From: a virus
Direction: 5' to 3' (one strand)
DNA length: 55,594 nucleotides
IMG/VR virus record: IMGVR_UViG_3300007770_000016
Span: 1-55,594 of that record
Position 1 is the stretch's first letter. The number at the start of each line of letters is the position of its first letter. The notes beneath the pieces were generated by a model. It saw nothing but the letters and a program-made list of their open reading frames with translations. It made no database searches and had not been told where the DNA came from. Position numbers and translations under genes: made by a program. Below, piece after piece: positions 5,753 through 55,480 of the stretch.

Positions 5753-6823
5753 ATGTCAATACATCAAGCACAGAAGAACGAGTTTCCCATTAAAAGGGAT
5801 CCTTCCCTACCACCACCCCCACAGAACCCGTACGAAACCGTAGCAATCCAAAGAGTTGTAGATTTAGAATTAAAATTCGAAGAACGCCTAAGAGAGATTA
5901 ACGGCACTCTTTTAGCTCTCGCCACCCACATCGAAAGTTTATCAACCCCCACTCAATCTAAGGTTTCACGGGAAGTAAGGAGGGTGTGGACCCCCGAGAA
6001 ATCCGATATGTTGTTGTGGAAGACAGATAAAGTGGGGGTTTCTTGGGATAACCACTATAAGGGAAGCAAGATATTTCTCGTGTGCGGAGGCCCCTCACTT
6101 AGCGACACTGATTTGTCGCTAATGGATAACCGTGGTGTAATGAGTATGTGTATGAATAATTCATGGTGTATGGTTAAGCCCGATATATGGATAGGATTTG
6201 ATTCTCCGGGAAGATTCCATAATGGGGGGTGGGAAGATCCTTCTATTATGAAAATAGTTCCGTGGCAAAGAAGAGAGGAAAAACTAACTCATAGAGTAAA
6301 CGGGGAATTACAACCTTCAGATTTGACCCCTTTAGATATGCCTAACTGTTGGATGCTCTCAAATAATACGACCTTTAATCCGGATACGTGGTTCACCGAA
6401 AAGTCTGCGAATTGGGGGGGTCCTATAGAAGGGGTAGAACCCGAGGGGGGATTCCGTGTAACTATGTTTGGGGCGTTAAGAACTCTTTATTATTTAGGGT
6501 TCCAAGAGGTTTACCTTTTAGGGTGTGACTGGGAGATGCCTACAGATATGAGTAAAGAAGCTTATGCGTGGGAAGAAAACAGAGCCCAGTCTGTAAGAGA
6601 AAAGAATAATGATATGTATCGGTGGTTAGAGGGAGGACTTAAAAAACTTCTACCGGGATTTGAGAGAGCAAATTTCCAAATCTACAACTGCAATCGAAAC
6701 TCTAAACTTTCTCTGTTCCCTTTTATTCAATACGAGGATGCAATAGAAAGATGTTCTATTCCTACACCTACTAACACTCGTGGTTGGTATGATATTCCTA
6801 ACAATAGGGACACTGAAAAATGA
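5753..6823 (+). CDS. DUF115/MptE-like glycosyltransferase-like protein (356 aa)
   Basis: The first 75 residues are helical. A Rossmann-like core then begins with a strand and glycine turn, LVCGGPSLSD (about 109-118), followed by MNN, PDIWIGFDSP and YLLGCDWEM (about 254-262). This pattern matches DUF115-type proteins, which in many phages lie beside sugar-transfer genes. A good Shine-Dalgarno sequence (AAGGAA) precedes the ATG. The gene overlaps the following glycosyltransferase-like gene by 4 nt and lies directly after the fibre genes. A role in modifying the fibre, or a host or phage glycan, is inferred. Confidence 0.6.
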   Translation: MSIHQAQKNEFPIKRDPSLPPPPQNPYETVAIQRVVDLELKFEERLREINGTLLALATHIESLSTPTQSKVSREVRRVWTPEKSDMLLWKTDKVGVSWDNHYKGSKIFLVCGGPSLSDTDLSLMDNRGVMSMCMNNSWCMVKPDIWIGFDSPGRFHNGGWEDPSIMKIVPWQRREEKLTHRVNGELQPSDLTPLDMPNCWMLSNNTTFNPDTWFTEKSANWGGPIEGVEPEGGFRVTMFGALRTLYYLGFQEVYLLGCDWEMPTDMSKEAYAWEENRAQSVREKNNDMYRWLEGGLKKLLPGFERANFQIYNCNRNSKLSLFPFIQYEDAIERCSIPTPTNTRGWYDIPNNRDTEK

Positions 6824-12549: not shown

Positions 12550-14946
12550 ATGGCAGAATTACAACCTTCAGTTACATCCCAATCAACACAAAATATTGCT
12601 ACAGGATCCGCAAACCTTAGGGCTGAAGCGGATCGTCAGGCTAGGCTTGATACTGAAGCCAAAAGGCTTAAGGCACAGGCTATTGAAGCAGAAAATAAAA
12701 GAAAACATCAAACCTGGGAGCGACAAGAAAAACAAGAGTGGGATAGGCAACAAGCAGAAGAGGGTTATGATCGTTTAAGGGAAGAGAACGACAGGATATT
12801 AAAAGAGAAACGAAAACAACAATTACTAGATCAGCTAGATGCTGAACAAGATCGTCTAAACGCGGCACAAGCATCAGCCCAAAATCATGCCACAACTACG
12901 GCTGTGACCCATATAGACAACGCAACAAAAAATGCTTATAAAAACTATCTTACCGCAAAGAACCAACCCCAAGAAGAGAGTGGGGGGTATACTCCTACGT
13001 TTGGAGGAGTACCGGGCATGTTAGCGGGAGCTCTGTTAGGTACTACGCCAGAATCAGAAGAAGATCCTAGTTTTTTAGATCAAGTAATGGAAGGGGATCT
13101 TTACCAAAAATATGGTTCAGATGAAGCGTGGGCCCCATATACAGATCTTAATAGGCCCATGCAAATAGACAAACAAACAGGTATCGCATCATCAATTCTT
13201 GCGGATATGGACGCTGAACAAACAGACGCATTGGCAGAACTAATTAAAGAATTTGGTCCTATTAAGAAAAATTTATATAACGAAAAGGGAGACCTTGACG
13301 ATGAAATTAGTACTTTCATCGGAAATATCGGACAACAACTTGTTAATATTTCGACACTGGAAGCGGAAACCTTTCGTAAAATCCAACAACTATTTGACCC
13401 TAGTGGGGGGTCTATAGATTGGACAAAGGTTGTAGGCGGGTTAGACTCTTCCACTGGTAATGTAAGAGCAGCAGAACTTTCGACTGGTATCCCATGGGGT
13501 CTTGGGGGTTTAAATCTTCCTCTTGGGATGATAGCTAATGCAGATCAACTTCCCTTCTATGATGAAGTTGTTGGCAAGGGAGAAAGCGAATGGTTCAATA
13601 ACTATTTTCAGGAAGATTGGGCAAACCATCTTAGTAGCGTAGTTGGAAATGCTAGAGGTAACTCTAAAGCAGCAGTAAGAGAACTTATAGGTAATAGGAT
13701 GACCGACGATGAGTTTAACGGTGTATGGGGAGCAGACGGCTCCGGACTAAATACTCCCAATAATTATGTTGCTTTTGGTGAGTCTCTTGTGGGAACCCAA
13801 TTAGATATGAAAGAGAAAAAGTACAATGCAGGTTTAGCTTTGCACGTAAGAAATGCAGCTGGAAAAAGTCTCACGGCAAAAGAGCAAGCTTCCTTAGAAG
13901 CATGGCAACGACAGGTGGGTGCCTCAGATCAGAATCCTGTTTTGAATCCTAATCTCTACAATCCAGATACCCCGGGTGGGTTAGAACAATTCGCATATAG
14001 CCCTAGAAGTGTTTCTAGTGGAGTAACAATTTTAACTCGTCAAATAGCAAACGGACTTCGAGATTGGGACGAGGGAGCAGCAAATGCACTAGAAAGAATT
14101 ATGCCCATTTTACAAGACTTCGATAATGCGGAATCAACAAATGACGATGATTACAATAGAGCCTCTAGTCGAATTCAGGCTGTATTAGAAGAAGAGGGAG
14201 TGGGTTCTTCTTATCTTATAATTAGAACTATTGCTAAAGAATTAAGTGGTGCACGAGAACTAGCGGGTGGTGAACAAGGCGAAGGCACCATTGGATTACC
14301 TAAAAATGCAGGACAAATATTCGATAAAAATTTAGGATTACATGACGATGAACTGCATACCGCAACAGGTGTTTATCATGATGTTTTAGATAAGGTGAGT
14401 AATCTTGGAATGACATTCTTAAACTTAACGAATAAAAATAATACACAAGCAAATTCCGATATTCTGAGTAAGGGACTTGAGAAATCTCTACAAGAATTAG
14501 ATATCTATTCTGGTGAAACCCGGACAGTAACTATAGGAGAGGGGGCTGAAGCTGTAGAGTATGAAGTTCCTGAATTAGACACCGACTTCGTAGACAAATT
14601 TACTGGATGGGTAGAGAAAAATTTAGGGGACAAATACGGTCCAGAATACACAGATAAGATTAGTGAGTCTGTTATACGATCAGCTATGGGTGGAAACTTT
14701 GGACCGGGAATGAGTCCTATCGAAAAAGAATATAGTCAATATCAAGATGTGTTTGATCAAATGCTCGAGTTTGATTTTAAGGAAGATGAAGTAATGTCAG
14801 GGCTTAAAGATAAAGAATCTGAAGCATTAAAACAAACCGAAGATGTTGTAACTCTACGACGGAAACTAGCAAAAGCAATAGCTGCTGATGCTTCAACGGC
14901 CAATATAAAAAGAATAGAAAAACAAATTAAGGAACTTGAGGATTAA
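12550..14946 (+). CDS. Putative internal virion/ejection protein (798 aa)
   Basis: An N-terminal highly charged coiled coil (about residues 20-115, rich in Arg, Gln, Glu and Lys) is followed by a Gly/Pro-containing linker with GMLAGALLG and a long mixed region ending in another coiled coil (about 755-798). No enzymatic motif was found. Size, helical content and position after the 454-aa protein suggest a core or DNA-ejection protein; this is inferred. Its stop overlaps the next start (TAATG). Confidence 0.45.
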   Translation: MAELQPSVTSQSTQNIATGSANLRAEADRQARLDTEAKRLKAQAIEAENKRKHQTWERQEKQEWDRQQAEEGYDRLREENDRILKEKRKQQLLDQLDAEQDRLNAAQASAQNHATTTAVTHIDNATKNAYKNYLTAKNQPQEESGGYTPTFGGVPGMLAGALLGTTPESEEDPSFLDQVMEGDLYQKYGSDEAWAPYTDLNRPMQIDKQTGIASSILADMDAEQTDALAELIKEFGPIKKNLYNEKGDLDDEISTFIGNIGQQLVNISTLEAETFRKIQQLFDPSGGSIDWTKVVGGLDSSTGNVRAAELSTGIPWGLGGLNLPLGMIANADQLPFYDEVVGKGESEWFNNYFQEDWANHLSSVVGNARGNSKAAVRELIGNRMTDDEFNGVWGADGSGLNTPNNYVAFGESLVGTQLDMKEKKYNAGLALHVRNAAGKSLTAKEQASLEAWQRQVGASDQNPVLNPNLYNPDTPGGLEQFAYSPRSVSSGVTILTRQIANGLRDWDEGAANALERIMPILQDFDNAESTNDDDYNRASSRIQAVLEEEGVGSSYLIIRTIAKELSGARELAGGEQGEGTIGLPKNAGQIFDKNLGLHDDELHTATGVYHDVLDKVSNLGMTFLNLTNKNNTQANSDILSKGLEKSLQELDIYSGETRTVTIGEGAEAVEYEVPELDTDFVDKFTGWVEKNLGDKYGPEYTDKISESVIRSAMGGNFGPGMSPIEKEYSQYQDVFDQMLEFDFKEDEVMSGLKDKESEALKQTEDVVTLRRKLAKAIAADASTANIKRIEKQIKELED

Positions 14947-15263
14947 TGGATTGGAAAAAGATTTCTCGAAAGTTAGTAGAAGACCATAAAGATAAAGGTT
15001 CTTCTATTATAAATTTAACCCCCCACTCTAAAGGGGGTGAGGTTGTTAATTTATCTACAGATGACTTTTGTTTAGAACTTACCGGGAAAGAACTATCTAC
15101 TAAAAAGGTTAGAAGGTTTTTGTGGGAGAATCGAAAGAAGAGGGCCCTCAACAGAAAACACGGAATCATCTGGTCAGCATACCTTGAAGATGAAGATAAG
15201 TCCTATGTTGGAGTGGGGGCTATTACAGACCCAAAAGTTGCAGCACGCATGGAAGGTAACTAA
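14946..15263 (+). CDS. Small hypothetical protein (105 aa)
   Basis: A basic protein with a Lys/Arg-rich middle (KKVRRFLWENRKKRALNRK, about 60-78) that suggests nucleic-acid or protein contact. It is locked into the operon, since both its start and its stop overlap neighbours by one base (TAATG). No family is recognised. It lies between an ejection-type protein and the SLOG-domain protein and may act with them. Confidence 0.55.
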   Translation: MDWKKISRKLVEDHKDKGSSIINLTPHSKGGEVVNLSTDDFCLELTGKELSTKKVRRFLWENRKKRALNRKHGIIWSAYLEDEDKSYVGVGAITDPKVAARMEGN

Positions 15264-17191
15264 TGCCTTCCGAAGATCAAATTTTAAGGCAGAAGATAGC
15301 AGATGCTATGGCTAATATTCAGAATGCCTTTACGGATCAATCATCTACATATAAAGGCAAAACCACGGTTAAGATGGACATGGATCTTAATTGGAAGGTA
15401 AAGACTTTTGATGGAAGAGTTATCCATAAAAAGGGACCTCGTAAGTTTACACAGAAAATGATTGTGTCTTTGTTAAGGGACAGACCCGATTTAATCGAGG
15501 ATATTAATTTATTAACTAACGGGTTACGAGGAGAAATGAGTAAGGGTGTAAGAAATCCATCCGGATTAAATATATCTCACGCCTCAAAGTTTTTAACAGG
15601 TTATCTTCCTGACGGAGGTACCTATCCAAAACCAAATCCTAACGCGGGTAGAGGTGTACATTTTCTGTTACCCCAAGCATGGATAGATCCGAAGAGGGGA
15701 TTGTTAACAAAACTTCGATCTGCTCTATTAAATAAGAATACGGTTAGAAAAATCTTAGAGATTCCCGGAGGGGAGACAAAGTTATCCCATCTAATTGTTA
15801 ACTTAGACAGGTTACTAGATACAACAGGTTCGGCTACTGTACAACCAGAAGGAATCGATCCCCTTAAAGCGGCTAAAGAAGAAAGAAACTACTTACGACA
15901 AGGACAACAAAGAGGAGCCTTCGCTCCTATTCCATCTGCTGATCCCACACCAACGAGACCTGTAGAATTAAGCAAAAAAGATTATGTAAAGCGTTTAATG
16001 CAGAGGAATTACTTTCAAATACAAAATGCAGATCGAGTAATTGCTGCTGCTCCTATAATCATTAATAATACTGCTGTTCAAGGCGGTACAAATGCTGCTG
16101 TTCAAATGGGAATTAATAAAGGTATTCCTGTTAACGTATTTAATTTAACTGATAATCTTTGGTACGAATGGCATGGGGATTCTGAGAAGTTTATAAAGTC
16201 ACAACCTCCTTCTCTCTCCCATACAAAACGGTTCGCGGGGATAGGTAGTCGCAGATTAACAAAGCAAGGTGAAAATGCAATAAGAGAATTGTTTAAAGGA
16301 CCTATACCTAAAGGATTAATAATAGATTCAGGAGGGGCTCGGGGTGCTGATACGTTGTTTGAAAATCTAGGGAAGAAAGCTGGTTATGAAGTAAAAGCTC
16401 ATTCCTTTGAAGGACACAGTACCACATCTAAAAATAGAGTGATTCATTCTGCAACAGAATTAAAAAAAGCCAATCCGTTTCTTAGACGAGGTGCTTCTTT
16501 ACTTGATTTCTATACTCCCGGAATAACACAGGTTGGAGATCGAGCATCTAGTGCCATGATACAAGAGTTGATGCGTAGGGGTTTATTGGAAGAAGGTAGA
16601 AGTGGAAAGTATTTAACTAGTGCCGAGGCTGGGTTATTGATTGATGCGGATATAGAAAAGGGTATATCAGAGGCTAGATCGAAAAGGGTAAGTACAAAAG
16701 ATCCCGTCTCAAGTTTGATTAAAACCGAACTTCCTAGTGGTAAAGTGACAGAGATAGGAGATATTGTAGAGGGGAGTAAAAAAGGAAAACCCATACCTTT
16801 TGGTTATGGCCCAAGCAAATATTTCGGTACTCCGGGAATTTCCCATCAATTAGATAAGACACCCACAAGTAATAAACAGTTTGAACACATTAAGAATATT
16901 TCTCGATTTAAATCTACTCTTCCAGGAACCAAGGTTAGTCCCATGATTAACCTTACGAACTGGATACAACAGTCTACCCAAGGTGGAGTGGGGGCTATTA
17001 ACGCTGCAGAGGCAACCGAATCTTTTGTTAAAGCAAAAACCTTCCCTGCAACATCGGAGTTTTTTACTAAGATACGTAAGCCAATACATTTATCTAGAGC
17101 TGCTAGGGGGTTACCATTAATTGCAATCCCCCTACTATTAGCAGGATTTTTTGGTACTATGAACGAAGATAGGGAATTACCCGTAAGTTAA
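15263..17191 (+). CDS. SLOG-domain virion-region protein with hydrophobic C-terminus (642 aa)
   Basis: Three SLOG/DprA-like elements are visible. NADRVIAAAPI leads to GGTNAAVQMGINKGIPV (about residues 258-288), the part that normally closes such domains. Then come FAGIGSRRL (324-332) and SGGARGAD (356-363), which normally open it. The halves are therefore in swapped order, either a circular permutation or two partial domains. SLOG proteins bind nucleotides or nucleotide-derived signals. A hydrophobic segment (RGLPLIAIPLLLAGFFG, about 614-630) ends the protein, as in other proteins of this arm. Its place among ejection-type genes suggests it is packaged and delivered to the cell; this is inferred. 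Confidence 0.6.
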   Translation: MPSEDQILRQKIADAMANIQNAFTDQSSTYKGKTTVKMDMDLNWKVKTFDGRVIHKKGPRKFTQKMIVSLLRDRPDLIEDINLLTNGLRGEMSKGVRNPSGLNISHASKFLTGYLPDGGTYPKPNPNAGRGVHFLLPQAWIDPKRGLLTKLRSALLNKNTVRKILEIPGGETKLSHLIVNLDRLLDTTGSATVQPEGIDPLKAAKEERNYLRQGQQRGAFAPIPSADPTPTRPVELSKKDYVKRLMQRNYFQIQNADRVIAAAPIIINNTAVQGGTNAAVQMGINKGIPVNVFNLTDNLWYEWHGDSEKFIKSQPPSLSHTKRFAGIGSRRLTKQGENAIRELFKGPIPKGLIIDSGGARGADTLFENLGKKAGYEVKAHSFEGHSTTSKNRVIHSATELKKANPFLRRGASLLDFYTPGITQVGDRASSAMIQELMRRGLLEEGRSGKYLTSAEAGLLIDADIEKGISEARSKRVSTKDPVSSLIKTELPSGKVTEIGDIVEGSKKGKPIPFGYGPSKYFGTPGISHQLDKTPTSNKQFEHIKNISRFKSTLPGTKVSPMINLTNWIQQSTQGGVGAINAAEATESFVKAKTFPATSEFFTKIRKPIHLSRAARGLPLIAIPLLLAGFFGTMNEDRELPVS

Positions 17192-17201
17192 GGAAACTAT
17201 T

Positions 17202-17603
17202 ATGCCACTACCAGCACTAATACCCGCAGCAGTTCCTGTCGCAATGAAGGGTCTCAATGCCCTCATGATTTATATGTTTGCTAAAGAGATGGGGATGTTT
17301 GATAAATATACAGAGGAAGGTTCTCGGATGATGTCGGGGATGGAAACGATGAAACCCGCGATGAATGCTCCCTTCTCCTCTTCTGCTGAGATGAAGGGTA
17401 TGGAAGCCGAGGCAGATACAATGGAAAGAATGGGGGATTGGGCAAACCAAATGGGGAAAGTAAAACAGAATTATCAATCTATAGATAAGCAAAATCTCGA
17501 TAATCTTCTAACGGGGAAGCAAGCACTACTTACTAGGGCTTCCAGTTTAAGGCCTAGTATGCAACAATCAATTGCTTCACTCGTATCATCAGGAGCTATT
17601 TAG
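17202..17603 (+). CDS. Small Met-rich hypothetical protein (133 aa)
   Basis: The N-terminus is hydrophobic (LPALIPAAVPVAMKGLNALM, residues 3-22) and reads like a membrane-inserting helix. The rest is Met-, Ala- and Lys-rich and helical (MMSGMETMKPAM; GMEAEADTMERM). AAGGAA lies 7 nt before the ATG. The stop TAG shares a base with the GTG start of the next gene. Family not recognised; a minor virion or ejection component is a guess from position. Confidence 0.5.
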   Translation: MPLPALIPAAVPVAMKGLNALMIYMFAKEMGMFDKYTEEGSRMMSGMETMKPAMNAPFSSSAEMKGMEAEADTMERMGDWANQMGKVKQNYQSIDKQNLDNLLTGKQALLTRASSLRPSMQQSIASLVSSGAI

Positions 17604-18178
17604 TGGTAGCCCCTGGTTTAAGAGCATTTCTTCGTACTGATTCCTTACGTAAAGCGTGGGATTTAGCAAAAGGTACTAAGGCAGGACAGGCCCTTAGGGG
17701 TGCTGGGATGTATGCTGGATCTGCAAGTAATGTGATTACGGGTGTTCCGGGTGCTAAGTGGGCTATGAAACACCCGTTTATAGCAGGTCCCGCACTCTAT
17801 TTGGGGGGTAAACATATAGGTGCAGACATGATTGCTAAACCTATGTATGAGTCCTTTACAGATGTTAATAGTCCTTATCGACAGATGATAATGGATAGTA
17901 AGCAGAGGAGAGCAGAACAAAAGTTAGCTTTGAGGACGAGAGTACAATATGAAGATGTACAAAGAAGAGCTGCCCAAGCAGCTATGCGACTTGCAGCATT
18001 AGACCCTCATCTATACAATGAAGTGATGGCGGGGCGAAGCCTTCCTAAAGACGCTGTTGTCTTTGGGGGTCAGCCTCGTACAGATTTAATGGAAGAACTC
18101 GCTATGGGAATGGCCCAAGGGCAGTTCAAAGAACCCCCATCAGCTCATGAAGAGTTGATGCAAGAGCTAGGAGCTTAA
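17603..18178 (+). CDS. Hypothetical virion-region protein (191 aa)
   Basis: The start is GTG overlapping the upstream TAG by one base. The N-terminal half is Gly/Ala-rich with amphipathic character (KGTKAGQALRGAGMYAGSA), and a helical, Arg/Gln/Ala-rich section spans about residues 100-140. No motif is recognised. The amphipathic, small-residue composition fits a membrane-interacting ejection protein, but nothing in the sequence proves it. The next gene starts 1 nt after the stop, preceded by GGAG. Confidence 0.5.
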   Translation: MVAPGLRAFLRTDSLRKAWDLAKGTKAGQALRGAGMYAGSASNVITGVPGAKWAMKHPFIAGPALYLGGKHIGADMIAKPMYESFTDVNSPYRQMIMDSKQRRAEQKLALRTRVQYEDVQRRAAQAAMRLAALDPHLYNEVMAGRSLPKDAVVFGGQPRTDLMEELAMGMAQGQFKEPPSAHEELMQELGA

Positions 18179-18667: not shown

Positions 18668-21600
18668 ATGGAATATCAATCTTCTCCGTTTGAACCCATC
18701 CGCTCCTTTGATGCTCCGGGAGTTGCATTACAACAGATACTTAGTGACAATGTTTCAGTAGGTTCTATACGAGATTTACTTACACCCAGTAGAAGAGCAT
18801 TTTTAACTCCAGAAGAACAAGCATCCATAGCAGAAAATTTCAAGGATAAATATGGTGGTGATAATAGGGTTCTAAGGACCATGTTAGGTATCGCCACCAA
18901 TCCCTGGATATGGATGGGTGCAATGCTTACCCCAGCCGGTGTAACTGCATTAAAGGAAACGGGTTCGATATTTCTAGGTAGGGGACTATCTACGGCTAAA
19001 GGCATTAAAGGTGGCAGTGCGTGGCTGGATGCGTTAGGTGTATCTACTAGTCACCAAGCACTTAACGGTACACTATTTGGATCTTTAGCAGAAGTAGACG
19101 ATCTACTAAGGAAGAAAACTTATGCCATTGATGCTATAGAGTTCCAAAAAAGTTTAGCCCGATACTACAAATCTAATCCTTCCATGCTTAGAAAGCACGG
19201 GATAAAGGAAGTACCAACAAATATAGATGAATGGATGCAGGTAGTAGCCAAAGAGTTAAAACTAGAAAAGCCACATAAGTTTACAAGTAAAATCTTTAAC
19301 CCAGATTACCAAGGAGTCCATAAGGAGTGGGGGGGTACTATTAATAGATCGCTTTATGCCGAGTTGTCTGGTATGTCGAAGAGTACTTCGATACAAACTC
19401 CTAGTGTTCAACCGACGTTCTCAGTTTCTGCTGCGAGTTTAAAAGAAGCAAAGAGATATGGAGTCTCAGCAGATTATATAAGTGGGGGGAGTAAACCGGG
19501 AAGATTTGAAATAGATATGGATATGTACATAGGACTTAAGAGAGAGAATGACTCGGCTTTACGGGCAGGAGCTATAGACCAACCTCATGGTGTACATCAA
19601 GACGTAAATAGTATGAAGGTAGTTAAAAAGGGAGACCCGACAGAACAAATGATGCTCGAAGAAACATCTAATGTTCTTAGAGAAACATTGCATCTGGATC
19701 CTATAATAAATGCATACCGTGCTTCTTATGATAAGAGAGCAATCATGTTGTTTGCAAATCAACGAAAGTGGGACGACCATGGAATTTTCGAATTAGATCC
19801 TGACAAGATAAAAACTCTTTCTGCATCTATGGATCCCGCAGGTCACAACTCAAAGTTTTTTAAGACAACTTCTGGAGAAGTATTATCTAAGGACGAACTT
19901 AGTTCTAAGGGTGTAGATTTCTTGAGGAGCATTTTTGACATTGATCATTTTGGTGCGTTAGCAATGAGTTCTACAAAAAGAGAAAGAATTCTTACTGAAT
20001 TGATGGAAGCAACTGTGGTTGATATGTTCAAGAACAAAACATATATACCTCGTAATACATATAGATTAACTCATGATGTAATGGAAAAATTACCCGATGG
20101 TTCCTTCAAGTCTATTGGCATTGAGAAGTCAGCTTTACACAGTTCTTCTGTGGCTAATGCAGAAACACTTTCGGAGGTGAATCGTTTGGCTCCTCGTACA
20201 ACAGGAAGTAGATTCTTTCACCCCCATGATTATCAATGGTTAAGGGAAATGAATGCTCAACATGGAGGTTCCTCTTCACGTTTATCAGTACGAAATCAAG
20301 CCGATGATATAGACAAAGTATTGAAAGATAAAATCAGAGCTTCACGGGGACAGATAAAAGAAAATACGAGTAAGTCTCTACAGACCAGTATGCTTACTAT
20401 GGATGCCGTGACAGGTCATCGTAGGTATATGAAAGATACAAGTGAGATTTGGTCTCGACATATTCCACATAAGACTGTAACCGAAACAGGTCTAGAAATG
20501 CCTGACATGGAAGTATATGGACCTCTTATAGTAATAGATGAAGCGATTAGAAAGCAAGGACTTCCCGCAGGTGGCTATACAAATTTAGATGACCTCTTCT
20601 TACGCAGTACGGCTTGGAGAAGCGGAAACAAAAGATACACTAAGGAAAGTGGAAAAGCTGGGGATATGCCAGCCGAGACTTGGGATACAACTTTAGAAGA
20701 TCTTATAGTAGGTGCAAGGGATGATCTTGGAGATCTTACGGGTGCTCCTCTAGCAGCAAATGCACCAGATGGAGGCGTAACTATTGGTGACATCATGGCA
20801 CATACTTACGCTTCTATGAAGAATACTTATGCTGCAGACATAGCGAAGGATGTTTTGCTTCCTTATATTTCTAGTCGTGTTACGGCTAAACATAGTGCTA
20901 TGAGATCTGTTCAATTGGCAACGCAAGAGAATCTAGCCTCGTTTGCTAACAGTTGGTTAGGTAAGAAAATAGAAACCTTTGGTCAACCAGGAAAAGACTT
21001 CATAAATTCTATGAAGACCATGTCTACATACGAAAACATAACAAGCAATATGGCTAAGGGTTTGTATGTAGGATTTCTAGGTTTAAATATGTCTAGTGTT
21101 ATGCTTAACATGATGCAACCGCTTCTCCATGCTGCAATGTGGGGCGGCTTAGGTAATGTTATGCCAGCATATCTAAAGGCCTTTTCAGAAATAGCGGGGT
21201 ATGCTGCGGATAGGGCTAAGTTGGGATGGAAAATATCAAGTGGTAAACGTGCAGAACTAAACCAAAAACATTTTAAACATATTGGTGAGGGTCTTGACAA
21301 TGACTTACTTGGGGTTCAACCCGATGTCTTTGCAAATATTGAGGGTGCTTCATACGCAGGAGTTCAAGGATATGCAACGGAGGGCAATCTTCATTACTTA
21401 ACAATGACCCTTCCCATGAAGTTGTTTGAAAAAGCAGAGCTTATGAACCGTCTTACAACTGCACACATGGTAGATGGGTTATATAAAAGGGCAGGAATTG
21501 TAACTCCCAAGATGCATACACGGGGAGTGTGGAATGAAGAACAAAAGAATCTATACCGTAAGATGATCGATACTAAGAGGATGGTTCAGGAGGCACAGTT

Positions 21601-22750
21601 TGGTGGTACTGTTACTAATATGCCCACTGCATTTATTGGCCATGGTCCTGCGGGTGGTGTCATGTCTAATGCATTATCTAGACAATTTCTTAGTTTTCTT
21701 GCTCGTGCTGCTACATCATTTGGAATAACAGGTAGACAAATTTCTCCGTATCGTCGCATCAAAGAAGGAGTTCCTTTTGTTGGTGGTAAGAAATTCCTTG
21801 GAGATTTCAAGTATGGTTATGCAGCAGCCGACTTCCTTCGTGTAATGGGTACAGGTGCTCTCGTTTATGAGATAGGTAAAGAGATGACAGGTATGGATAT
21901 GTCGAGGGGTTTAGGATTTTCACCGATGATAGAAGTTATGGGTGGTGGTTGGAAACCACCAATTGTTAGTATTCCCTATGATTTTATGGAAGTAATTTCT
22001 GGCGACTTAGAGTTTGCTAAGTCTTCTATACCGGGTGTAGTTCCGGGTGGTATAGGCATCGTTCGTGCTATGGGGATGTTACCTAAAATGGGAGATTCCT
22101 TCTTACCTGATTGGACTAATGATTTACAGAAGACCTATGTAGACTGGAACACTACTACTCCCGATGGTGCTCACCCTATATATAAACCAGATGGCAGTTT
22201 AATCAACTACGAAAAACCTTTTACAATTGTCACCAGAGGGTTAGGAATAAATATGGAAGATCATCCTAAGGCAGGAGAGGTAGATGGATATCTTGTCAAG
22301 CAACGAGAGATGATCATACAAATGGAGAGTGACTATATAAACGCGGTGCTTAGTAACAACATACCTAAGGCTAAAAGTATAGAAGCAGAATTCCAAAAAC
22401 GATTTAATCTTCCTATGAAGATTTCTAAGAGACAATGGAAAGCACGACTCAAGAACTTGCAAGTAGCAAGACTCGAACGTATAGCAGACACCATACCAGC
22501 AGAATACAAACATCTATATCAAGGAACGCTACAAGATGAGCACAGTAGATTAGGATTACAATCTCCTGAAGATGTAATGCTTGGTACTACTTCTGGTAAG
22601 AGAACTACAGCGGGAGCAGTAAGACCTCAAACTGTTAACATTGATTCGAAGTCTGTTGAAGAAATTAGACAACATCTACGTAGAATAGAACAAGAGGAAA
22701 AACCAATAGAGGACCAAGGATTTAATCCGTTTCAAGCATGGAACCAATAA
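18668..22750 (+). CDS. Very large putative ejection/virion protein (1360 aa)
   Basis: The largest gene of the genome opens the third virion unit. Residues 60-115 contain hydrophobic stretches (NPWIWMGAMLTPAGVTAL). A second hydrophobic, Met-rich zone lies at about 795-845 (LYVGFLGLNMSSVMLNMM). Most of the rest is helical and charged, ending in a Glu-rich tail. No polymerase, peptidase or lysozyme motif was found. Size, scattered membrane-like helices and late position fit a DNA-ejection/internal virion protein comparable in role to T7 gp16, without visible homology. The start is ATG with no SD, 6 nt after TATAAT, so leaderless translation is likely. The end overlaps the phosphoesterase gene by 13 nt. 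Confidence 0.6.
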   Translation: MEYQSSPFEPIRSFDAPGVALQQILSDNVSVGSIRDLLTPSRRAFLTPEEQASIAENFKDKYGGDNRVLRTMLGIATNPWIWMGAMLTPAGVTALKETGSIFLGRGLSTAKGIKGGSAWLDALGVSTSHQALNGTLFGSLAEVDDLLRKKTYAIDAIEFQKSLARYYKSNPSMLRKHGIKEVPTNIDEWMQVVAKELKLEKPHKFTSKIFNPDYQGVHKEWGGTINRSLYAELSGMSKSTSIQTPSVQPTFSVSAASLKEAKRYGVSADYISGGSKPGRFEIDMDMYIGLKRENDSALRAGAIDQPHGVHQDVNSMKVVKKGDPTEQMMLEETSNVLRETLHLDPIINAYRASYDKRAIMLFANQRKWDDHGIFELDPDKIKTLSASMDPAGHNSKFFKTTSGEVLSKDELSSKGVDFLRSIFDIDHFGALAMSSTKRERILTELMEATVVDMFKNKTYIPRNTYRLTHDVMEKLPDGSFKSIGIEKSALHSSSVANAETLSEVNRLAPRTTGSRFFHPHDYQWLREMNAQHGGSSSRLSVRNQADDIDKVLKDKIRASRGQIKENTSKSLQTSMLTMDAVTGHRRYMKDTSEIWSRHIPHKTVTETGLEMPDMEVYGPLIVIDEAIRKQGLPAGGYTNLDDLFLRSTAWRSGNKRYTKESGKAGDMPAETWDTTLEDLIVGARDDLGDLTGAPLAANAPDGGVTIGDIMAHTYASMKNTYAADIAKDVLLPYISSRVTAKHSAMRSVQLATQENLASFANSWLGKKIETFGQPGKDFINSMKTMSTYENITSNMAKGLYVGFLGLNMSSVMLNMMQPLLHAAMWGGLGNVMPAYLKAFSEIAGYAADRAKLGWKISSGKRAELNQKHFKHIGEGLDNDLLGVQPDVFANIEGASYAGVQGYATEGNLHYLTMTLPMKLFEKAELMNRLTTAHMVDGLYKRAGIVTPKMHTRGVWNEEQKNLYRKMIDTKRMVQEAQFGGTVTNMPTAFIGHGPAGGVMSNALSRQFLSFLARAATSFGITGRQISPYRRIKEGVPFVGGKKFLGDFKYGYAAADFLRVMGTGALVYEIGKEMTGMDMSRGLGFSPMIEVMGGGWKPPIVSIPYDFMEVISGDLEFAKSSIPGVVPGGIGIVRAMGMLPKMGDSFLPDWTNDLQKTYVDWNTTTPDGAHPIYKPDGSLINYEKPFTIVTRGLGINMEDHPKAGEVDGYLVKQREMIIQMESDYINAVLSNNIPKAKSIEAEFQKRFNLPMKISKRQWKARLKNLQVARLERIADTIPAEYKHLYQGTLQDEHSRLGLQSPEDVMLGTTSGKRTTAGAVRPQTVNIDSKSVEEIRQHLRRIEQEEKPIEDQGFNPFQAWNQ

Positions 22751-23514
22751 AAGCAACATTCGCAGCGATATCATGTATACATACACCATTTGAAAATCTT
22801 GAGGCTAAGGAACGGATGCTCGCATCCCTCTCGGACTCTTCCCCCACTCATTTCGTTCTCCTCGGAGATCTCTTCGATGCGGGTTCGGTCTCGGTTCACC
22901 CTCACGAATTCGAGCATGCTCTCGAAGATGAGTACGAACGGGGGCATCGGTACCTCTCGGATATTATGGCTGTGTTACCCCCGGAAGTTGAGTTGGTTTG
23001 GGTTCATGGGAATCATGATGATAATATTTTAGCCAAAGATCCGAGGCGTTCTCCTAGAGGATTACGTTCCTTGCTGTCATGGAATAAGCATTATGAATTT
23101 GGTGAACTGTTTAGGAAGTGGAAGCAGATACCCTATACAAAATCTAAGAAGGGTATGTATAAATTAGGACAGGTATATTTCTATCACGGCTTTGATGCAG
23201 GAGTTAATAGTGATGAACTAGAAACTATCCAGATGGCACAGATGGCAGGGGGTCACGCTCATAGATTATTTATAAGAGGTCATACTCATAGACCTACAGT
23301 GGGGGTTGAACAATGTAGGAGAACCCTTAAAATAAAACTGCCGTGGTACTACGCTAATGCGGGTACGATGGGACCTCTCAATCCTGACTATATGAATCGT
23401 AAGGATTCATCGGGATGGGGTGCTGCAATGGTTAGAGGTGAGGCTTCCTTGTCGGAACCTAGAAGACCCTCTACTTCAGATTGGGACGCTCACGTAGAAT
23501 TATTCGATGGCTAA
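22738..23514 (+). CDS. Calcineurin-like metallophosphoesterase (258 aa)
   Basis: The family motifs appear in order: SCIHTP (H15), GDLFD (43-47), GNHDD (91-95), YHG (about 142) and GGHAHR with RGHTHRP (H173-H184). This two-metal fold hydrolyses phosphomono- or diesters. The usual Asp of the first DxH motif is replaced by Cys13, which may alter one metal site. Substrate unknown; phage members act on nucleotides, DNA ends or phosphoproteins. It lies in the late virion arm, not with replication genes, which is unusual. A stretch at about 22796-22960 is much more GC-rich (CTC, TCG codons) than the rest of the gene. The end overlaps the next gene by 8 nt. Confidence 0.85.
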   Translation: MEPIKATFAAISCIHTPFENLEAKERMLASLSDSSPTHFVLLGDLFDAGSVSVHPHEFEHALEDEYERGHRYLSDIMAVLPPEVELVWVHGNHDDNILAKDPRRSPRGLRSLLSWNKHYEFGELFRKWKQIPYTKSKKGMYKLGQVYFYHGFDAGVNSDELETIQMAQMAGGHAHRLFIRGHTHRPTVGVEQCRRTLKIKLPWYYANAGTMGPLNPDYMNRKDSSGWGAAMVRGEASLSEPRRPSTSDWDAHVELFDG

Positions 23515-24352
23515 ATCAACCGCTAGACTTGCTGCTGAACAAAGAGTTATTCGAGAACGAATGGTTCCTCGTATTCTTAAGGATATGGGTGCTTCAAATA
23601 AAGAAATAGATAGGTTATTAGTTTTAATGGGGAAAAGTGGGACACCTGGTGGGTTCTTTGCATCCCCCCTTCGAGGTCAAATTAGAAAGGCTAGAAAAGA
23701 ATTGAGAAGAAGCAGCGATGCTCCCAGCAAGTATTTGAAAATGTCGAGAAAAGAACTGGCGCGAGAATTTCAGAGGGCACTTATTGGGGAAGCAAGGGGA
23801 GAAAAGGGATTAAAAAAGGTTTCAACTAAACGCCCTTTAATGATGATTCAACCAACGAATTATAAAGATCTTCGGGGTGTCATTGCTCACGAGGGAGGGC
23901 ACTATTTAGATTGGTTAAAAAACAAACAAAAATTTCATTCAATGGCACCATTACAACATGAATTTAGAGCGGATAAATCAGCTGCTGCATATCTAAAACA
24001 ATTTGGTAAAAAAGGTATGGGTGCTCACTATATACAAGATCGATTGAGAGCAGAAGCATTACAAATTACAAAACAAGGAAGTATCTTAGGCACTTGGGAC
24101 CCTATAAAACAAGAAGTTAGGAGACACTCAACGGCAACTGGTACACCTTCTCATCCTAGATATACTGGTGTTCCGCATACAATTGATTGGAAGCATACCG
24201 GTGGTATGACGGAAGCAACTCCTAAAGCTTTCGTTGGAGCTGGTAAGACTCCATATAAATATGGGGTTCATGTACTTAAAAAAGCAGGACTTATGGGACT
24301 ACTCTTGGCACTAATGCTCCCGATGTTTATGAGCGAGAAGAAGAATGCATGA
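23507..24352 (+). CDS. HExxH zinc-metallopeptidase-like protein with C-terminal membrane tail (281 aa)
   Basis: HEGGH at 128-132 is preceded by hydrophobic residues (GVIA). It is followed 20 residues later by HEFRADKSAA, whose Glu152 fits the third zinc ligand of gluzincins (ExxxD pattern). The N-terminal 100 residues are basic and helical. The C-terminus is a hydrophobic, Met-rich helix GLMGLLLALMLPMFM followed by SEKKNA. The next protein has both the same kind of active site and almost the same tail, so the two look like diverged duplicates. Peptidase activity in the virion or at the cell envelope is inferred. ATGA overlap with the next gene. Confidence 0.65.
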   Translation: MAKSTARLAAEQRVIRERMVPRILKDMGASNKEIDRLLVLMGKSGTPGGFFASPLRGQIRKARKELRRSSDAPSKYLKMSRKELAREFQRALIGEARGEKGLKKVSTKRPLMMIQPTNYKDLRGVIAHEGGHYLDWLKNKQKFHSMAPLQHEFRADKSAAAYLKQFGKKGMGAHYIQDRLRAEALQITKQGSILGTWDPIKQEVRRHSTATGTPSHPRYTGVPHTIDWKHTGGMTEATPKAFVGAGKTPYKYGVHVLKKAGLMGLLLALMLPMFMSEKKNA

Positions 24353-25068
24353 TGGCTGAAATACAAAATGAATTATATGATCAGTTGTTTAAACTTATGT
24401 TTGAGGGAGAATCGGTAGAAAAGGTTCCTTTATTTAAATCTAAAGGACACAACAGATATGCTCCCTTTCAACGCCCGTATTTTCAATCTGTTCGCCCTAT
24501 TTCTAATACCGCTTTAGATCCTTGGATTGAAATTGACAAGAAGCTTTTTGAGACAAAAGCTAAACCTTTTAACTTTCTTTACAAAAATCCTAAAGAGTTA
24601 ATATATGCGATGAGTCATGAGTTAGGTCATGCTAAGGACTTTAGCGATATATCTAAAAAGATGACCCCCCGTGAATTTAGAAAATTGTGGACATCTAGAA
24701 GCGGAATAATAGATAAGCTTGGTGCTGAGACTAGAGGGGCAAAAATTCACATGCCTTTTCTAAGAGAACATTTTGGTAAAAATGCTCTCTCTGAATTTCG
24801 TAAAAAAGATTTTCTTTTAAAAGAACAATTAGGTACTTATGGTGACAAAATTTCTAAGAAAGACTTACTGAAAGAGATAAAAAGATTTCATGGTCCTAGT
24901 CATTCTAGTCGTTTTTTATCTCAAGTATTAGGATCGGAGTCTTCAATGTTGACGAATATGGGAGTGAAGTATAAAAACCTTGCTGGGATAGCAAGGTCTG
25001 CAGGTCTCATGGGATTGCTTATGGCGATCATGATTCCGATGATGTCAGGTGAGAAGAAGAGTGCATGA
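24349..25068 (+). CDS. Second HExxH zinc-metallopeptidase-like protein (239 aa)
   Basis: HELGH at 90-94 within YAMSHELGHAKDF is a canonical zinc-binding motif. Glu127 in LGAETRGAK is the likely third ligand, 33 residues downstream. The C-terminus GLMGLLMAIMIPMM followed by SGEKKSA matches the tail of the preceding protein almost position for position, while the rest has diverged. Both genes also end in the same GAAGAAGARTGCATGATG sequence. It is the last sizeable gene of the forward arm. Envelope-digesting or protein-processing roles are possible; the substrate is unknown. Confidence 0.65.
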   Translation: MMAEIQNELYDQLFKLMFEGESVEKVPLFKSKGHNRYAPFQRPYFQSVRPISNTALDPWIEIDKKLFETKAKPFNFLYKNPKELIYAMSHELGHAKDFSDISKKMTPREFRKLWTSRSGIIDKLGAETRGAKIHMPFLREHFGKNALSEFRKKDFLLKEQLGTYGDKISKKDLLKEIKRFHGPSHSSRFLSQVLGSESSMLTNMGVKYKNLAGIARSAGLMGLLMAIMIPMMSGEKKSA

Positions 25069-54405: not shown

Positions 54406-54951
54406 ATGAACATAGAAATAGGATACAGCCCGTACGAAGAAGCAATAAACACCGGACTACAAATGGGACCAGAACACGAGGTTCTTCCGGAAAGCGAGTG
54501 GCTACGTCACATAAAACGAGAGACGGGTAGAAAAGACCTATTTGTATATAGACACAAATACACAAAGCGGTTCGTACTTGCTCACTGGATATATCCACCG
54601 TGGGAAGTAACTAGACCCGTATGCCTAGAATTGGATACGATGGATAAACCACCAGATAGGGGGGGTTGGATACCCACTAGATTCATAAAATTACGGTGTG
54701 CTCCTGTAGACCAAGAAGAAGAGAAGTTGAAAAAACAACTTCACCATCAAGCGGAATTACGCGAAAAAGAAAGTTCTCGCCTAGAATCCGTAGAACGCAA
54801 ATACTCTATGGTAGACCACTTAAAGCGTAAGGGTATGGATGATGCTGCCTTGTCCCTAAAAAATTCCAAGGTACACTATAGTGAGGATACCAGTGAACTA
54901 ACTGAAGATCTCATCAATGCTTCAAAAGGAAAGGTAATCACTCATGGCTAA
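54406..54951 (+). CDS. Hypothetical protein with leaderless start (181 aa)
   Basis: The start ATG (MNIEIGYSPYEEA) lies 6 nt behind TATACT; longer frames upstream run into the terminator and are unlikely. The first 100 residues form a folded domain with Trp/Tyr/Arg (HIKRETGRKDLFVYRHKYTK; LAHWIYPPWEV), followed by a Glu/Lys coiled coil (about 105-140). It overlaps the next gene by 8 nt. A head-completion or virion role is inferred from location only. Confidence 0.6.
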   Translation: MNIEIGYSPYEEAINTGLQMGPEHEVLPESEWLRHIKRETGRKDLFVYRHKYTKRFVLAHWIYPPWEVTRPVCLELDTMDKPPDRGGWIPTRFIKLRCAPVDQEEEKLKKQLHHQAELREKESSRLESVERKYSMVDHLKRKGMDDAALSLKNSKVHYSEDTSELTEDLINASKGKVITHG

Positions 54952-55480
54952 AGATCCCTCATTTAATTGGACAAAAGAACAAAGACGAGCCGCTGCTCGA
55001 AAAGCAGGTGGTGGAGGTAGAGGTGCGGCTGGTTCGTGGACTAATCAACAAACTAAGTCTTATGACAAAATGTCACGGGCAGCAATGAACGCAGCAATGT
55101 CTGAAGCTCGAGTAGCTAACCAACCAAAATCTAGTCTTTCAGGCATGTCAGATAGATATGCGAATAAAATGTATAAAATGAAAGGGCAACTCGCTAGGGG
55201 AGGAGGGCTTGCTCTTGATCAATTAGAAAATCAAATGTTGCAAACGACAGGAGGGAAATTAGGATTCCACAATTATCAACCGGGTCCTGATAAGGCTTAT
55301 CTCCCCGAAGGTCGAGGTCCCGGATATAGTTCTAGTAGAAAAGGACTTACGGATATAGTAAAAAGGATGGGGGGTAAAGGTGGAATGGGGGGTATGATGG
55401 CTATGCTTATGATGATGATGGCAATGGGTATGATGGGTGGAGGTGACGATAACGATTCGCTAGAAGGATTACTAAGATAA
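54944..55480 (+). CDS. Hypothetical protein with Met-rich hydrophobic end (178 aa)
   Basis: Basic Gly/Ala-rich N-terminus (RRAAARKAGGGGRGAAG), a central polar part, then an extreme Met/Gly segment (GGMMAMLMMMMAMGMM, about 149-164) before an acidic tail (DDNDSLEGLL). The segment could insert in a membrane and resembles in kind the tails of the HExxH proteins. AAAGGAAAGG precedes the ATG. The stop TAA shares a base with the start of the adaptor-like gene in the repeated end. Confidence 0.55.
   Translation: MAKDPSFNWTKEQRRAAARKAGGGGRGAAGSWTNQQTKSYDKMSRAAMNAAMSEARVANQPKSSLSGMSDRYANKMYKMKGQLARGGGLALDQLENQMLQTTGGKLGFHNYQPGPDKAYLPEGRGPGYSSSRKGLTDIVKRMGGKGGMGGMMAMLMMMMAMGMMGGGDDNDSLEGLLR

What the first reader, a model, noticed from the sequence alone, without database searches (positions are those of the whole stretch)
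16020..16420. SLOG domain with swapped halves in a probable ejected protein
Seen: the GGTNAAVQMG half (about 16078-16130) precedes GSRRL and SGGARGAD (16232-16350), the reverse of the usual order. The protein is encoded among ejection-type genes and ends in a hydrophobic segment. Established: SLOG domains bind nucleotides or nucleotide signals, including in anti-phage systems (TIR/Thoeris, CBASS-linked). Inference: a virion-delivered sponge or sensor for host defence signals.
Basis: partly seen in the sequence, partly recalled or inferred. Interest (0 to 1): 0.65.

Follow-up and report, generated by a model that had tools for sequence, protein, structure and literature searches.

The report
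Rearranged nucleotide-binding domain in phage gene
A phage gene in the virion-gene block carries a nucleotide-binding (SLOG) domain whose three parts are cyclically rearranged into an order that no other relative found here shares; it may be a delivered counter-defence protein, but that function is untested.

Summary
ORF 15263-17191 (642 aa) carries a SLOG domain at residues ~239-420 (15977-16522). Its segments run C-A-B (C = RNYFQ..GGT; A = FAGIGSR; B = SGGARGAD). Classic DprA/SLOG is A-B-C; the closest family, PHROG_768 ("DprA-like"), is already permuted (B-C-A, like Pfam cpYpsA). The window is thus the third cyclic order, a second permutation. Of relatives examined, 102 ORFs are B-C-A and only the window is C-A-B; a pattern scan of IMG/VR found no other. 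HMMs built without the window recover both halves; reordering the segments in silico restores full-length profile matches. AlphaFold gives one confident domain (pLDDT 90, pTM 0.85). 29 of 33 conserved positions are kept, but an invariant Trp is Ala.

The gene is a hypervariable slot between conserved genes of a podovirus-like virion module; close relatives keep its hydrophobic tail with other centres, and a distant relative has a different, A-B-C SLOG there. Virion delivery is inferred, not shown. Binding of a nucleotide signal (sponge or sensor) is the most likely role; ssDNA binding, antitoxin mimicry or catalysis remain open. A real new variant of a known kind.

The parts
15263..17191 (+). 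Slot (cargo) gene, 642 aa, carrying the permuted SLOG domain; start overlaps the previous stop (TAATG)
   Evidence: synteny and hypervariable centre
15977..16222 (+). Segment C (residues 239-320): YVKRLMQRNYFQIQNADRVIAAAP...GGTNAAVQMGINKGIPVNVFN..NLWYEW
   Evidence: HMM without window, C+A E 3e-37; hhalign 99.9% probability, 45% identity to the PHROG_768-type profile
16223..16306 (+). Segment A (residues 321-348): FAGIGSRRLTKQGENAIRELF, the first strand and helix of a classic SLOG, here in the middle
   Evidence: DprA profiles match A then B at 312-367
16307..16522 (+). Segment B (residues 349-420): SGGARGADTLFENLGKKAGYEVKAHSFEGHSTTSKN..., here last; first in PHROG_768/cpYpsA, middle in classic SLOG
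   Evidence: HMM without window, E 2e-22 at 351-415
17099..17155 (+). C-terminal hydrophobic segment (residues 613-631, AARGLPLIAIPLLLAGFFG), kept as a tail in slot proteins of relatives
14946..15263 (+). Conserved 105-aa gene immediately upstream of the slot (38-71% identical in relatives)
17603..18178 (+). Conserved 191-aa gene downstream of the slot (34-60% identical)
18668..22750 (+). Conserved 1360-aa protein (28-48% identical in relatives); possible large internal virion protein by size and order only
23507..24352 (+). Second variable slot: 281-aa protein with HEGGHYLDWL metalloprotease-like motif and a similar hydrophobic tail
   Evidence: (weak)
24349..25068 (+). 239-aa protein with SHELGHAKDF metalloprotease-like motif and hydrophobic tail

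Best explanation
The domain is a genuine SLOG (DprA/YpsA-type Rossmann-like) nucleotide-binding domain that arose from the phage B-C-A family (PHROG_768) by a further circular permutation: the chain was opened in the surface loop between segments B and C and the old ends (A and B) were joined. It sits in the middle of a cargo protein with a conserved N-terminal part and hydrophobic C-terminal tail, encoded in a slot of the virion module whose centre differs between related phages. Most likely the protein is packaged and delivered with the DNA, and the domain binds a nucleotide-derived host signal (for example an ADP-ribose derivative) before phage genes are expressed, acting as a sponge or decoy rather than as a catalyst. 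Shown: domain identity, segment order, conservation of pocket motifs, slot synteny and variability; predicted: single fold. Inferred: packaging and delivery, ligand class, sponge action.
For: Profiles without the window find both halves. Reordering restores full-length matches: classic A-B-C profile 30.0 to 62.9 bits, PHROG_768-type profile 122.4 to 181.0 bits. Model pLDDT 90.4, pTM 0.85; highest-probability PDB match is DprA 3uqz at 1.7 A over 59 columns; phage relatives fit over 99-115 columns at 1.4-2.4 A. 29 of 33 conserved positions kept, including GIGxR, SGGAxGAD and GGT. The tree places it inside the B-C-A family. Slot: most flanking genes 34-95% identical, slot centre unalignable; a distant relative holds a YAcAr SLOG in the same slot. 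The same domain family lies inside Pylas virion RNA polymerase and giant crAss-type proteins and is fused to phrog_2072 and DUF4326 modules. PMC7824862 links DUF4326 to Macro/SLOG/NADAR proteins; PMC9503650 proposes that viral SLOG domains counter ADPr signals.
Against: No direct evidence of packaging; no neighbour matches a known ejection protein. No ligand evidence. The family name (DprA-like) equally fits ssDNA binding. The Trp invariant in 58 relatives (GGTxW) is Ala in the window, so the pocket may have changed or lost function. The long terminal branch (0.98) is compatible with relaxed constraint. Only one C-A-B exemplar exists in what was searched.
Confidence: 0.45

Rival explanations
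1. The domain is a DprA-like single-stranded-DNA or recombination partner: delivered or expressed with the genome, it binds incoming or replicating phage DNA or host RecA and protects or processes it.
For: PHROG_768 is annotated DprA-like; the best solved-structure matches by sequence and by local fold are DprA; NCBIfam dprA match 7.7e-05, far below cut-off; one giant relative carries the domain next to a Dda-like helicase (L025).
Against: 22 bits against a DprA cut-off of 191. Fusions in relatives (phrog_2072/A1S_2505, DUF4326) point rather to nucleotide chemistry.
Confidence: 0.2
2. The domain mimics the DprA-type antitoxin or sensor of host systems such as ShosTA or DprA-PRTase and blocks the toxin or effector by protein-protein contact.
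For: PADLOC ShosA is the best defence-library match (2.4e-04, A-B part); DprA homologues serve as antitoxins in shosTA and as partner of a PRTase in a defence system (PMC9122126).
Against: Weak match confined to about 50 residues shared by all SLOG domains; the profile is matched only in its A-B part.
Confidence: 0.12
3. The domain is an enzyme that cleaves N-glycosidic bonds of ADP-ribose-type signals (LOG- or deoxyribosyltransferase-like).
For: 12 of 58 relatives weakly match Nuc_deoxyrib_tr; PMC9503650 proposes such activity for viral SLOG domains.
Against: The motif here is GGTNAAVQM; the Glu of the LOG motif PGGxGTxxE (general knowledge, not tested here) has no evident counterpart.
Confidence: 0.13
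4. A decaying, non-functional insertion in a rapidly evolving slot protein, or an assembly artefact.
For: Single exemplar, long branch, invariant Trp lost.
Against: Open frame throughout, breakpoints at natural loops, 29 of 33 conserved positions kept, base composition similar to the rest of the gene.
Confidence: 0.1

Closest known systems
PHROG_768, 'DprA-like DNA recombination-mediator protein' of phages
   Same: All three segments, about 31-53% identity, pocket motifs; window nests inside it in a tree
   Different: Order B-C-A in all 102 complete relatives examined; window C-A-B; invariant Trp replaced by Ala
Pfam PF12694 cpYpsA, circularly permutated YpsA SLOG family
   Same: Same superfamily; cpYpsA has the B-C-A order of PHROG_768
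   Different: Permutation point differs from the window; window gives no family-level match
DprA (PF02481 / TIGR00732, PDB 3uqz)
   Same: Local match at 1.7 A over 59 columns, 32% identity
   Different: Classic A-B-C order; scores far below curated cut-offs
Classic phage SLOG proteins of IMG/VR (L144-L163)
   Same: Same three motifs (GIGSR, SGGAxGAD, RNxxQ..GGT)
   Different: A-B-C order, mostly stand-alone proteins of about 170-230 aa
Large phage proteins with an embedded PHROG_768 domain (Pylas virion RNA polymerase, crAss-type giant proteins, L025 helicase fusion)
   Same: The same domain family embedded in a larger phage protein
   Different: Window host protein is small (642 aa), in a hypervariable slot with hydrophobic tail, and the domain is permuted again

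Membership tests
SLOG superfamily | Rossmann-like fold with GxGxR, SGGAxGxD and GGT-type motifs forming one domain | tested here: met
   Motifs; single confident model; local DprA superposition; relatives weakly match several SLOG or related Pfam families
SLOG superfamily | Nucleotide (or DNA) ligand | not testable with these tools
   No ligand assay available
PHROG_768 | Significant profile match | tested here: met
   1.4e-16 in two stretches
PHROG_768 | Segment order B-C-A | tested here: not met
   C-A-B
cpYpsA (PF12694) | B-C-A circular permutation and family-level score | tested here: not met
   Order C-A-B; no match
DprA (TIGR00732) | Score above curated cut-off (191 bits) | tested here: not met
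   22 bits
Ejected virion (internal/cargo) protein | Encoded within the virion-gene block and coupled to its genes | tested here: met
   Synteny, TAATG overlap; that the block is the virion block rests on tail-fibre genes just upstream and conserved order
Ejected virion (internal/cargo) protein | Homology to a known ejection protein | tested here: not met
   No PHROG, Pfam or NCBIfam match outside the SLOG domain; neighbours likewise
Ejected virion (internal/cargo) protein | Presence in the particle | not testable with these tools
   Needs proteomics
Thoeris-type SLOG sensor (ThsA) or anti-Thoeris sponge | Match to a defence-system profile of that kind | tested here: not met
   PADLOC gives only ShosA 2.4e-04 and PsyrA 0.05

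The most novel reading that the evidence does not exclude
Phage virion cargo slots capture SLOG domains repeatedly, and circular permutation at fixed loops is how the domain is re-cut to fit inside a delivered chain: the window is a second permutation of an already permuted family, so all three cyclic orders of one fold exist, and the delivered form is a nucleotide-signal sponge that acts before phage genes are expressed.
Probability: 0.2. Interest if true: 0.72.

Novelty: new variant of a known kind. Interest (0 to 1): 0.52.

Why it matters
A natural fold found in all three cyclic orders of its parts is unusual; this case gives a likely direction (B-C-A to C-A-B) inside one phage domain family and a testable link between permutation and embedding in a virion-module protein. 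If the slot protein is delivered, it points to a variable locus (SLOG here, a different SLOG in a distant relative, other unknown domains in closer ones) where phages of this group may keep early counter-defence proteins, findable by synteny and by the hydrophobic tail.

Tried and rejected
Whole-protein and single-domain queries against IMG/VR found nothing; plasmids nothing. A remnant of a second B upstream (residues 205-240) was suggested by one HMM alignment but did not hold when that stretch was searched alone. The first fragment alignment for AlphaFold misplaced the B rows and was discarded. The idea that the window domain moved from the A1S_2505/SLOG gene of the close relative L116: highest identity is to that protein (50-53%), but the tree groups the window with L025, so this was not adopted. 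Pattern hits for C-A-B in IMG/VR all proved classic A-B-C. PDB fold searches gave no full-length sequential match for the window or for the B-C-A control, as expected for permuted folds; the long hits with rmsd of 7-16 A are not meaningful. Equivalence of the 191-, 798- and 1360-aa proteins to T7 gp14/15/16 was considered from sizes and order only and is not claimed.

Full report
Observation. ORF 15263-17191 on the + strand encodes 642 aa. Pfam and NCBIfam DprA profiles match residues 312-367 (A followed by B), while PHROG_768 matches in two stretches, the better one at 239-304 to profile positions 107-175 of 191 (1.4e-16).

What 'swapped' means. I divided the fold into three segments: A (FAGIGSR... 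strand and helix), B (SGGAxGAD...) and C (RNYFQ... GGT... VFN). Classic SLOG/DprA proteins run A-B-C, as do the IMG/VR sequences pulled by pattern. PHROG_768 members, including Klebsiella phage Pylas virion RNA polymerase, crAss-type giant proteins and jumbo-phage proteins, run B-C-A. Pfam cpYpsA proteins, named as circularly permutated, also run B-C-A. The window runs C-A-B. Seven relatives rearranged to C-A-B align with the window end to end at 31-40% identity.

Census. The alignment found 197 relatives in IMG/VR (best 80 kept) and 17 in genome contigs. Of the ORFs with a significant C segment, 102 were B-C-A, the window alone C-A-B, and three others were incomplete or irregular. HMMs built without the window find C+A (3e-37) and B (2e-22) in it. 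A motif pattern for C-A-B found only the window locally (0 in shuffles) and, in IMG/VR, 20 further stretches; the ORFs read there were all A-B-C. Limits: candidates needed conserved C motifs, and metagenome contigs could not be searched.

Permutation test. Scoring in-silico orders of the window domain against a classic A-B-C profile gave 30.0 bits as found and 62.9 bits as A-B-C (profile positions 2-173 of 176); against the B-C-A profile, 122.4 bits as found and 181.0 as B-C-A (positions 5-178 of 182). Pylas and a classic protein behaved correspondingly.

Structure. AlphaFold2 on residues 232-432, with relatives' C+A and B fragments as separate rows, gave pLDDT 90.4 and pTM 0.85; the Pylas B-C-A control gave 96.2 and 0.91. 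The secondary-structure strings show that the cut falls in the loop between the two helices that join B to C in the control, and that the new A-B linker joins what are the two ends of the control. Neither model has a full-length sequential match in the PDB, as expected for permuted folds; the highest-probability hit of the window model is DprA 3uqz over 59 columns at 1.7 A. In BFVD the hits with E <= 0.001 include crAss-type giant proteins, a phage helicase and an Atu_ph07 protein, aligned over part of the domain.

Conservation and ancestry. 29 of 33 strongly conserved positions are kept; the exception of note is the invariant Trp of GGTxW, Ala278 in the window. In a tree the window groups with L025 (97/80) inside a 25-row set (98/96) of otherwise B-C-A proteins, with a long branch of 0.98; since cpYpsA is also B-C-A, C-A-B is most simply the derived state.

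Gene context. Searches with the TerL and 1360-aa proteins found relatives of this phage. In L115, L116 and L141 the gene at the same position, between a conserved 105-aa gene and conserved 191-, 133- and 1360-aa genes, keeps a hydrophobic C-terminal tail (LLPALLLAGVFG-like) and, in two of them, N-terminal similarity, but has a different centre without SLOG; the 105-, 191-, second 133-, 1360- and 258-aa genes are 43-95% identical in these three, whereas the 798-aa and first 133-aa genes diverge too. In the distant relative L143 (G118) the slot protein begins with an A-B-C SLOG of the YAcAr family, above its curated cut-off. Close relatives L116/L117 carry a separate 471-aa protein with an A1S_2505-type N-terminal domain and a B-C-A SLOG (50-53% identical to the window's in its best part). 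Similar hydrophobic tails occur on two metalloprotease-like window genes (23507, 24349), on the variable gene in the same place in L116, and on a 154-167-aa gene downstream of TerL in relatives. The slot gene overlaps the preceding stop codon (TAATG), consistent with co-expression.

Mechanism. Shown: domain, order, conservation, slot synteny; predicted: a single fold. Inferred: packaging and delivery (position, tail, relatives inside virion polymerases and giant proteins; crAss cargo proteins are documented in PMC10172136, but that these giant crAss-type ORFs are the same proteins was not tested) and nucleotide-signal binding (superfamily, fusions to DUF4326 and phrog_2072; proposals in PMC9503650 and PMC7824862). 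The apparent lack of a LOG-type Glu argues for binding over catalysis, from general knowledge only. Rivals: ssDNA/recombination partner, antitoxin mimic, hydrolase, decaying insert.

Verdict. A real, well-supported second circular permutation of a phage SLOG family in a hypervariable virion-module slot; function open. New variant of a known kind, interest about 0.5.

Noticed in passing
window 23507-24352 and 24349-25068; L116 13828-15048; L118 6750-7481: A second variable slot follows a highly conserved (86-95% identical in close relatives) metallophosphoesterase gene: metalloprotease-like proteins in the window, an ART-like reading (by eye) in L116, a transglycosylase-like reading (by eye) in L118; several end in similar hydrophobic tails.
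   Followed up: partly
window 54944-55480; L121 17357-17860, L123 8684-9175, L131 6761-7225: A small gene downstream of TerL ends in a tail (KxLLPLLLLALLAGGMGMxGNE) much like that of the slot proteins: possible shared packaging or membrane tag.
   Followed up: partly
L116 16600-18015 (-): 471-aa protein: A1S_2505/phrog_2072 N-terminal domain, an ASCH-like middle (by eye), and a B-C-A SLOG; phrog_2072 also accompanies phrog_768 in L018 and L032.
   Followed up: partly
L027, L073: PHROG_768-type SLOG in ~900-960-aa phage proteins that also carry DUF4326.
   Followed up: no
L004 (Klebsiella phage Pylas) and Alteromonas phage vB_AemP_PT15-A5 (OP481051): PHROG_768-type SLOG domain inside a protein annotated as (virion) RNA polymerase in both phages.
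   Followed up: partly
L005, L006 (crAss-like phages cr272_1, cr113_1): The domain lies in giant annotated proteins whose standard-code translation shows internal stops, suggesting stop-codon reassignment in these phages.
   Followed up: no
window 5753-6823: Sialyltransferase-like match (phrog_4603, 3.9e-09) in a gene beside the tail-fibre genes.
   Followed up: no
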